11,066 bases of DNA from Clostridiales bacterium (GTDB lineage: Bacteria > Bacillota > Clostridia > Christensenellales > Christensenellaceae). The notes below the pieces were generated by a model. The model did no database searches. It was not told the DNA's origin and was given only the letters and a program-made list of their open reading frames with translations. How positions within the stretch are numbered: the first letter of the stretch is position 1; each line of letters begins with the position of its first letter. This document shows, piece after piece, positions 3,150 through 4,286 of the stretch. A program made the position numbers and the translations under genes. The stretch is from contig QAKS01000002.1 in assembly GCA_003343685.1 (NCBI GenBank), forward strand, positions 1 to 11,066. Reading direction: 5' to 3'.

Positions 3150-3983
3150 TTGGATATCAATTTAATCATTCAACAGGCTGTTGAGGAAGTCTTGAAGCAG
3201 GTCGGCGCAGCCGGTTGTGCTGCAGGCGCGGACAACGGAGATCTCTCTCCGGCAAGCATGGCGAAATATCTGGATGATACGCTGCTGAAAGCAGATGCGA
3301 CCATCGAGCAAATTAAAGCCGTCTGCGACGAGGCCAAGCAGTATCACTGCGCAAGCGTATGTGTAAACACCGGATATATTGCCTATGTTGCCGAGCAGCT
3401 CTCCGGCAGCGGCGTAACACCCTGCTGTGTTATCGGATTCCCTCTCGGAGCCATGACGAGCGAAGCAAAGGCAGCTGAGACAAGAGACGCCATTCAGAAG
3501 GGCGCCCGCGAGGTTGATATGGTTATCAACGTCGGCGCGATTAAGTCCAGAAACTGGGATCTCGTTCTTTCCGACATTAAGGCTGTTGTCGACGCAGCCC
3601 GCGGCTATGCCAAGACAAAGGTCATTATTGAGGCATGCCTGCTGACAAATGAAGAGAAAATCAAAGCCTGCGAGCTTTCCAAGCAGGCTGGCGCTGATTT
3701 TGTGAAGACCTCTACAGGCTTCTCTACAGGCGGTGCAACCTTAGAGGATGTACGTCTTATGAGGCAGACAGTTGGCCCTAACATGGGCGTTAAGGCGTCC
3801 GGCGGCGTCCGCACCTATGAGGATGCCGTTGCCATGATCAAGGCCGGAGCTACACGCATCGGCACAAGCAACGCTGCTGCTATCGTGACAGGCAAAGCAG
3901 CTGAGCATAAGTGCGTCGGCTGCGGAAACTGCAAGGCAAAGTGCCCCACAGGCGCTGCCGTTATCACAAACACTTGCTACTAA
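3150..3983 (+). CDS. deoC: Deoxyribose-phosphate aldolase with microcompartment-targeting N-terminus and Fe-S-like C-terminal tail
   Basis: The enzyme splits 2-deoxyribose-5-phosphate into glyceraldehyde-3-phosphate and acetaldehyde. The aldolase core spans about residues 36-248 with all catalytic residues: D123 in EVDMVINVG, Schiff-base lysine K186 in GADFVKTSTG and K215 in VKASGGVRT. The core ends with RIGTSNAAAIVTG. Two parts are extra. Residues 1-19 form an amphipathic helix (DINLIIQQAVEEVLKQVG) followed by an Ala/Gly linker to about 31, the layout of BMC encapsulation peptides. Residues 251-277 carry C255-X2-C258-X2-C261-X3-C265-P, an iron-sulfur-type motif, and a further cysteine at C276. 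The start is TTG at 3150, six bases after GGGAGG. A PduA-like shell gene follows 30 bases later. At 277 residues it exceeds the usual 215-260. The aldolase identity is near certain; targeting and cluster binding are inferred. Confidence 0.95.
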   Translation: MDINLIIQQAVEEVLKQVGAAGCAAGADNGDLSPASMAKYLDDTLLKADATIEQIKAVCDEAKQYHCASVCVNTGYIAYVAEQLSGSGVTPCCVIGFPLGAMTSEAKAAETRDAIQKGAREVDMVINVGAIKSRNWDLVLSDIKAVVDAARGYAKTKVIIEACLLTNEEKIKACELSKQAGADFVKTSTGFSTGGATLEDVRLMRQTVGPNMGVKASGGVRTYEDAVAMIKAGATRIGTSNAAAIVTGKAAEHKCVGCGNCKAKCPTGAAVITNTCY

Positions 3984-4013
3984 TATAAAAAATAATTTGG
4001 AGGATTACATACA

Positions 4014-4286
4014 ATGGAAGCATTGGGAATGGTTGAAACAAGAGGTTTGATCGGCGCTATCGAGGCTGCCGACGCTATGGTTAAGGCTGCAAACGTAAAA
4101 CTGATCGGCAAAGAAATGATCGGCAGCGGTCTCGTAACGGTTATGGTTCGCGGTGATGTCGGCGCTGTCAAGGCGTCCGTTGACGCCGGTGCCGCAGCCG
4201 CCAAGAGGGTCGGCGATCTGTATGGAGTTCACGTGATTCCCCGTCCCCACAGTGATGTGGAGCAGATTCTGCCCGCTGCAAAATAA
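4014..4286 (+). CDS. Hexameric bacterial microcompartment shell protein, PduA/EutM-like
   Basis: A 90-residue single-BMC-domain protein that would assemble into hexameric tiles of a protein shell around metabolic enzymes. It opens with MEALGMVETRGL, and continues with IEAADAMVKAANVKLIG, the pore loop IGSG (36-39), VRGDVGAVKASVDAG (46-59) and the ending VHVIPRPHSDVE (72-83). K24 and R77 correspond to the PduA edge residues K26 and R79 that join neighbouring hexamers. The small serine-containing pore resembles PduA, which passes small polar substrates. Its ribosome binding site GGAGG (3999-4003) lies 10 bases before ATG. It follows deoC by 30 bases and precedes a terminator, so it is the last gene of a two-gene unit. 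A closed shell also needs pentameric vertex proteins and usually trimeric tiles, and none is encoded here. Its own symbol (pduA versus eutM) cannot be chosen from the sequence. Confidence 0.95.
   Translation: MEALGMVETRGLIGAIEAADAMVKAANVKLIGKEMIGSGLVTVMVRGDVGAVKASVDAGAAAAKRVGDLYGVHVIPRPHSDVEQILPAAK

What the first reader, a model, noticed from the sequence alone, without database searches (positions are those of the whole stretch)
3150..4286. Two-gene satellite microcompartment locus: targeted deoxyribose-phosphate aldolase plus a PduA-like shell protein
DeoC yields acetaldehyde, the aldehyde that Eut-type BMCs contain. Here it has an amphipathic N-terminal helix and linker not needed for catalysis, and its only operon partner is a BMC-H shell protein, closed by a terminator. 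No aldehyde dehydrogenase, alcohol dehydrogenase, phosphotransacylase or vertex protein is present. The locus may feed deoxyribose-derived acetaldehyde into a shell whose other parts are encoded elsewhere, giving a DNA-sugar-degrading metabolosome. Aldolases in BMC loci of uncertain function are known in general; this minimal pair is less familiar to me.
Basis: partly seen in the sequence, partly recalled or inferred. Interest (0 to 1): 0.85.

Follow-up and report, generated by a model that had tools for sequence, protein, structure and literature searches.

The report
Organelle-targeted aldolase with shell protein
A bacterial operon of only two genes makes a sugar-cleaving enzyme tagged for a protein organelle plus one organelle wall protein, probably an add-on to a larger organelle gene set elsewhere in the genome; unexpectedly, the enzyme ends in a small tail that looks built to hold an iron-sulphur cluster, a redox part with no obvious role in its known reaction.

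Summary
Confirmed: deoC (3150-3983) and a PduA/EutM-like BMC-H gene (4014-4286), 30 nt apart, terminator-like hairpin after, no other microcompartment gene in the window. The window's genome is not held, so its other shell genes could not be sought. DeoC-fed (SPU) microcompartments and satellite loci are published. All 22 genomes found with it hold BMC-H/T and BMC-P genes; the 3 shell-less genomes searched that keep a targeted DeoC lack it. 16 of 22 fetched stretches with it also encode PduS and a PduT-type BMC-T. I read the pair as a satellite of an SPU-like metabolosome whose aldolase probably binds [4Fe-4S]; cluster, encapsulation, substrate and the main locus in this genome are inferred. 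New variant of a known kind.

The parts
3138..3143 (+). ribosome-binding site of deoC (GGGAGG)
   Evidence: sequence
3150..3983 (+). deoC, deoxyribose-phosphate aldolase with N-terminal targeting helix and C-terminal 4Cys tail, 277 aa
   Evidence: TIGR00126 286 bits; predicted structure matches solved DERAs
3156..3209 (+). N-terminal helix (residues 3-20), probable encapsulation peptide
   Evidence: helix in model, conserved in relatives; targeting inferred
3210..3251 (+). low-confidence linker between helix and barrel (residues 21-34)
   Evidence: residues 20-27 modelled at pLDDT under 50
3912..3944 (+). 4Cys motif CxxCxxCxxxC (residues 255-265), probable [4Fe-4S] site
   Evidence: Fer4 20.5 bits, cut-off 21.1; 120 of 120 listed homologues
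3978..3980 (+). C-terminal Tyr277, counterpart by position of catalytic Tyr259 of E. coli DERA
   Evidence: present in 120 of 120 listed homologues; role in E. coli from PMC8403123
3999..4003 (+). ribosome-binding site of the BMC-H gene (GGAGG)
   Evidence: sequence
4014..4286 (+). BMC-H shell protein gene, PduA/EutM-like, 90 aa
   Evidence: PF00936 100.8 bits; 91-92% identical to BMC-H of related loci
4306..4346 (+). intrinsic-terminator-like hairpin and T-run
   Evidence: 13 pairs

Best explanation
The two genes are a satellite locus of an SPU-like (DeoC-fed) metabolosome whose main locus lies elsewhere in the genome. The N-terminal helix carries the aldolase into the shell. There it splits a 2-deoxy-sugar phosphate, most likely deoxyribose-5-phosphate, into acetaldehyde and glyceraldehyde-3-phosphate; a resident acylating aldehyde dehydrogenase turns acetaldehyde into acetyl-CoA and NADH. 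The BMC-H adds facet tiles of the same kind as the main locus's own. The 4Cys tail binds a [4Fe-4S] cluster and works with the PduS/PduT redox path of such shells, as a lumenal electron carrier or as a redox gate on the catalytic C-terminal Tyr. Shown by sequence: the genes, the pair, conservation of the tail, its company with shells. Inferred: encapsulation, a main locus in this genome, the cluster, the substrate, the tail's function.
For: Intact DERA with helix, linker, barrel and tail. Tail in 120 of 120 listed homologues at fixed spacing. 13 of 80 nearest loci have the tail and all 13 have shell genes in the fetched flank, against 7 of the 67 without it. 22 of 22 genomes found with the tail have PF00936 and PF03319 genes. 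G802 has two deoC4Cys-to-BMC-H pairs on contigs other than its main locus, whose fetched stretch holds only a divergent DeoC. Window BMC-H is 91-92% identical to BMC-H of such loci. 16 of 22 fetched stretches with a 4Cys DeoC have PduS, and all 24 PduS-bearing loci examined have a BMC-T with the PduT-type Cys motif. Shell-less G008, G011 and G1017 keep the helix but lack the tail.
Against: The window's genome is not held. Fer4 scores below its cut-off and the tail is modelled at pLDDT about 60. L005 has the tail but no PduS or PduT-type BMC-T; L066 and L079 have PduS without the tail; L030 has a deoC-BMC-H pair without the tail. The tail is gained or lost at least 6 times on the tree, so co-occurrence counts are not independent of kinship.
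Confidence: 0.7

Rival explanations
1. Relic: the main locus was lost in this lineage and the pair is what remains; DeoC now works in the cytosol.
For: No main locus in the window; loss of shells with a remaining helix-bearing DeoC is seen in G008, G011 and G1017.
Against: In those three genomes no BMC-H stands beside deoC and the tail is gone; here BMC-H, helix and tail are intact and the BMC-H is 91-92% identical to functional-looking relatives.
Confidence: 0.12
2. The pair feeds acetaldehyde into a microcompartment of another kind (EUT- or GRM-type) in the same genome.
For: Acetaldehyde is also the EUT intermediate; the best NCBIfam model of the BMC-H is EutM; published SPU genomes carry EUT-module satellites (PMC8217296 passage).
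Against: In the BMC-H tree the window falls with BMC-H of DeoC-bearing loci (group of 31 rows, support 96/87), though that tree held no EUT or GRM sequences.
Confidence: 0.12
3. The tail is not an iron-sulphur site but a zinc or purely structural Cys cluster, or a docking element for another cargo.
For: Fer4 is below cut-off; the last Cys spacing varies in L010, L096, L104 and L105; L005 keeps the tail without PduS.
Against: CxxCxxCxxxCP is the classic [4Fe-4S] pattern (recalled); Pfam tail hits are all Fe-S families; most loci with it also encode PduS and PduT-type proteins.
Confidence: 0.2

Closest known systems
SPU (sugar phosphate utilization) microcompartments (Axen 2014, PMC4207490; Sutter 2021, PMC8217296)
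   Same: DeoC-type aldolase with acylating aldehyde dehydrogenase and shell proteins; proposed DNA-sugar breakdown
   Different: Window is a two-gene satellite; most related main loci here lack RpiB in the locus; the DeoC carries a 4Cys tail not mentioned in the passages seen
Satellite BMC loci, including EUT modules of SPU/HO genomes (PMC8217296, passages)
   Same: Shell gene plus enzyme away from the main locus, extending substrate range
   Different: Here an aldolase and one BMC-H; several such satellites in one genome (G802)
EP-bearing deoC encoded apart from HO-type loci (PMC8217296, passage)
   Same: Targeted DeoC outside the main locus
   Different: Shell gene partner and 4Cys tail here; HO shells are another type
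PduS/PduT redox pair and other Fe-S parts of GRM and PDU compartments, incl. PduK's C-terminal tetracysteine and ferredoxin-like insert of GRE activases (PMC6325248, passages)
   Same: Fe-S parts in or on a metabolosome
   Different: There the parts are redox enzymes, activases or shell proteins; here a redox-neutral aldolase
E. coli-type DERA (PMC8403123, passages)
   Same: Barrel, catalytic residues, C-terminal Tyr
   Different: Added N-terminal helix and 4Cys insertion before the Tyr
DeoC operons of A-domain encapsulins (PMC8346489, passages)
   Same: DeoC beside a compartment-related gene
   Different: Shell-like protein is HK97 A-domain, unrelated

Membership tests
SPU microcompartment locus | DeoC-type aldolase, pfam01791 | tested here: met
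   PF01791 73.5 bits, TIGR00126 286 bits
SPU microcompartment locus | RpiB-type isomerase, pfam02502, in the locus (shared by all published subtypes) | tested here: not met
   None in the window among the proteins scanned. In relatives, RpiB is in 4 of 21 fetched stretches with a 4Cys DeoC, several of them cut by contig ends; genome-wide, of 22 genomes, it lies inside a BMC locus only in those 4
SPU microcompartment locus | aldehyde dehydrogenase and BMC-P with the aldolase (main locus) | tested here: not met
   Absent from the window; present in main loci of relatives
Satellite BMC locus | shell gene of one kind only, apart from a main locus | tested here: met
   Only BMC-H in the window
Satellite BMC locus | a main BMC locus elsewhere in the same genome | not testable with these tools
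   Genome not held; met in relatives G802 and G013
Deoxyribose-phosphate aldolase (EC 4.1.2.4) | Schiff-base Lys, catalytic Asp and second Lys, terminal Tyr | tested here: met
   Lys186, Asp123, Lys215 invariant and Tyr277 nearly invariant in 50 rows; matched to E. coli Lys167, Asp102, Lys201, Tyr259 by motif, roles
Ferredoxin-type [4Fe-4S] domain (PF00037) | score over the Pfam cut-off | tested here: not met
   20.5 bits against 21.1
Ferredoxin-type [4Fe-4S] domain (PF00037) | four Cys in CxxCxxCxxxCP spacing (recalled pattern) | tested here: met
   Window and 120 of 120 listed homologues
Ferredoxin-type [4Fe-4S] domain (PF00037) | bound cluster | not testable with these tools
   needs purified protein

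The most novel reading that the evidence does not exclude
A class I aldolase that became an iron-sulphur protein on entering a microcompartment: the cluster, set between the barrel and the catalytic C-terminal Tyr, is reduced or oxidised through the PduS/PduT conduit and gates aldehyde release, or acts as a tethered ferredoxin that helps drain NADH electrons from the lumen, so that aldehyde is made only when the shell's redox exit is open. Around it, satellites of one aldolase plus one tile plug different sugars into a single core metabolosome.
Probability: 0.3. Interest if true: 0.82.

Novelty: new variant of a known kind. Interest (0 to 1): 0.6.

Why it matters
[quoted passage not shown] How electrons leave a metabolosome lumen is open; a fixed 4Cys tail on a redox-neutral cargo enzyme, tied to the presence of shells and mostly of PduS/PduT, offers a small protein in which to test it. 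If the pair works as a plug-in, it is also a natural minimal unit (one tagged enzyme, one tile) for adding a substrate to an existing shell.

Tried and rejected
Tried and led nowhere: the window's own genome (none held); a closer relative of the window in three genome draws of 394, 391 and 297 genomes, best identity 66%; placing the host by HtpG in 25 genomes, best 58% in G792, so no taxon is claimed; RNA families (none at gathering threshold); a promoter before deoC (none there on the + strand by its rule).

Considered and rejected: the 4Cys motif as chance (fixed spacing in 120 of 120 listed, the best 120 of 7998 scored); the tail as the mark of one DeoC clade (10 changes on the tree, at least 6 forced); a special satellite lineage of BMC-H (8 satellite rows scattered, 500 of 500 shuffles as low). 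A selenocysteine reading of the TGA at the first Cys codon of L008 was not tested; its genome G008 has no PF00936 gene and one short PF03319 piece, so decay is simpler.

One search used 49 chosen sequences, barrel only. One search kept hits of at least 60% identity and 75 residues and held few columns. The statement on shell-less genomes covers only the three searched genome-wide; L045, L046 and L067 also have an N-terminal extension, no tail and no shell gene in the flank, but their genomes were not searched. Completeness of the genomes is not told.

Full report
What is there. The window holds, on the + strand, deoC (3150-3983, TTG start, GGGAGG before it) and a BMC-H gene (4014-4286), 30 nt apart, each with a ribosome-binding site, followed by a 13-pair terminator-like hairpin at 4306-4336. 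The terminator scan found no more sites than shuffles do (3 against 2.0), so this rests on the hairpin itself. Neighbours are unrelated: a MetH N-terminal part, a separate MetH activation-domain protein and MTHFR on the - strand upstream; downstream a small protein without a family match, HtpG, an LPG-synthase-like membrane protein, a diglucosyl-diacylglycerol-synthase-like glycosyltransferase and a Y-family polymerase. Of nine window proteins scanned with Pfam only the two are microcompartment-related.

The aldolase. It scores 286 bits to the DeoC equivalog model and its predicted structure (mean pLDDT 88) matches solved DERAs, best 3ngj with TM 0.97 over the target. Asp123, Lys186 and Lys215 are invariant in a 50-row alignment; by motif they are Asp102, Lys167 and Lys201 of the E. 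coli enzyme, whose C-terminal Tyr also takes part in catalysis (PMC8403123, passages). Residues 3-20 form a helix and 20-27 are modelled below pLDDT 50, the shape of an encapsulation peptide and linker. The helix alone is only modestly amphipathic (4.5% of shuffles reach it); its conservation is the better argument.

The tail. After the barrel comes a 23-residue stretch from the first of four Cys to the final Tyr. In all 120 listed homologues (the best 120 of 7998 scored) the four Cys, the Pro after the last Cys and the Tyr are present at exactly this spacing. Wider relatives vary the last gap (L010, L096, L104, L105). Pfam's Fer4 scores 20.5 bits against a cut-off of 21.1; the other tail hits are also Fe-S families. 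That this is the classic [4Fe-4S] pattern is recalled. The model gives the tail two short strands at pLDDT about 60. It sits between the barrel and a Tyr whose E. coli counterpart can enter the active site. Cluster binding is inferred.

The tail goes with shells. With genomes, 22 genomes with a 4Cys DeoC were found, and all 22 have PF00936 and PF03319 genes (G001-G007, G009, G010, G014, G015, G017, G018, G272, G333, G349, G802, G826, G880, G942, G1000, G1011). Three genomes searched keep a DeoC with the helix but have no PF00936 gene, and all three lack the tail: G008 (Faecalicatena contorta; TGA where the first Cys codon stands; one short PF03319 piece remains), G1017 and G011. On a tree of 49 barrels the tail needs 10 changes, at least 6 forced.

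The tail and other redox parts. Main loci of relatives encode an acylating aldehyde dehydrogenase, PduL or Pta, a PduS homologue (in L009: Complex1_51K, SLBB, RnfC_N, Fer4_17), BMC-T, BMC-H, several BMC-P, and often triosephosphate isomerase, FGGY kinase, zinc dehydrogenases and a SorC-type regulator (families from representatives; others by similarity to these). Of 22 fetched stretches with a 4Cys DeoC (L106 repeats L009 and is left out), 16 have PduS; of the other six, L004, L096, L099 and L100 are stopped by a contig end, L102 is a satellite, and L005 is a true exception as far as its assembly goes (two PF00936 hits in the genome). All 24 PduS-bearing loci examined have a BMC-T with the C-[PA]-G-K-[YF] motif described for the PduT pore cluster (PMC6325248, passages); none of 6 PduS-less loci shows it, though in L022 no BMC-T was hit and in L060 and L005 the hit is only one domain long. 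Among the 20 BMC loci: 11 with tail and PduS, 5 with neither, 2 tail only (L004, L005), 2 PduS only (L066, L079), p 0.022.

The satellite reading. The window's genome is not held. C50 has BMC-H followed by a 39-40% identical DeoC without the tail, and C76 two BMC-P, a BMC-H and a 32% identical DeoC-family protein. The main locus on C8 runs PduL, an unknown 235 aa protein, BMC-P, aldehyde dehydrogenase, PduS, BMC-T, BMC-H, BMC-P, BMC-H, BMC-P and a divergent DeoC; a search of the whole genome found 7 DeoC-family proteins and no 4Cys one at C8. The satellites stand beside their own sugar genes: Rpe, SDR and ABC transporter genes on C31, a transporter on C50, zinc and D-hydroxyacid dehydrogenases, class II aldolase, FGGY kinase and transporter on C76, class II aldolase and SDR on C9. 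L030 (genome G013, with two main loci) shows a deoC-BMC-H pair without the tail at a contig end. The window BMC-H is 92% identical to the BMC-H of G826 contig C371 and 91% to main-locus BMC-H of L002 and L148; in a tree with few columns it falls in a group supported 96/87 with BMC-H of such loci, and satellite BMC-H do not group together. The pair adds an ordinary tile, not a special lineage.

What kind. DeoC-fed SPU compartments were named in 2014 and expanded in 2021, with DNA-sugar breakdown as the proposed role; satellites, including ones that may extend substrate range, and separately encoded deoC with an EP-like extension in HO-type genomes are described (PMC4207490, PMC8217296, PMC8156839; passages seen). 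By that account all SPU subtypes share RpiB. Here RpiB is in 4 of 21 fetched stretches with a 4Cys DeoC (L005, L007, L010, L098; several others are cut by contig ends), and of 22 genomes it lies inside a BMC locus only in those 4. Most loci with the tail are thus SPU-like but miss that feature. Supplementary tables could not be read, so a published subtype name is not excluded. Deoxyribose-5-phosphate is the likely substrate by residue conservation, but the sugar genes around G802's satellites warn that DeoC paralogues may differ.

Is the tail in print? Searches: DERA with microcompartment and 4Fe-4S (two papers; the passages seen, concern shell or PduS clusters); DERA with ferredoxin domain (none); satellite locus, aldolase and PduS (listing); SPU, deoxyribose and DeoC (listing); microcompartment with iron-sulfur (listing). 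In the 2021 catalogue's main text 'ferredoxin' and 'iron-sulfur' do not occur. I saw no mention; subscription papers and supplements were not searched.

How it most likely works. Targeted DeoC enters a shell built from the main locus, releases acetaldehyde to the resident aldehyde dehydrogenase, and its tail cluster exchanges electrons with the PduS/PduT path or senses its state. The first part rests on kinship and gene company; the second is inference from motif, position and co-occurrence.

Noticed in passing
L009:5174-5878; homologues in L001, L002, L003, L005, L007, L010, L097, L143 and others: A conserved protein of about 235 aa in these main loci has no convincing Pfam or NCBIfam match. 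Its model (pLDDT 75, pTM 0.58) resembles FMN proteins such as DmrB, UbiX and PPC decarboxylase (best Foldseek E 1.2e-4): perhaps a further redox part of the compartment.
   Followed up: partly
L102, L140, L141, L142, L143 (genome G802): Hub-and-spoke layout: one main locus and four satellites, each with a BMC-H, a DeoC-family protein and its own sugar genes.
   Followed up: partly
L061:9180-9968, 10001-10840 and 16622-17509; likewise L047 and L065: Treponema loci hold three DeoC-family paralogues with N-terminal extensions: plain, 4Cys and divergent; the divergent one also stands before the 4Cys DeoC in L001, L003 and L006.
   Followed up: partly
L008:10001-10820: Faecalicatena contorta deoC has TGA at the first Cys codon of the tail, and its genome has no PF00936 gene. 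Decay is likely; selenocysteine was not tested.
   Followed up: no
L079:9248-10699: A Heimdallarchaeota record has a complete BMC locus with PduS and a DeoC carrying a long N-terminal extension (483 aa) and no 4Cys tail.
   Followed up: no
window 3041-3076: Perfect inverted repeat AATTGCAC/GTGCAATT with 20 nt between the arms, upstream of deoC; possibly an operator.
   Followed up: no
window 1283-1957 (-): The MetH activation domain is encoded as a separate 224 aa protein beside the MetH and MTHFR genes.
   Followed up: no
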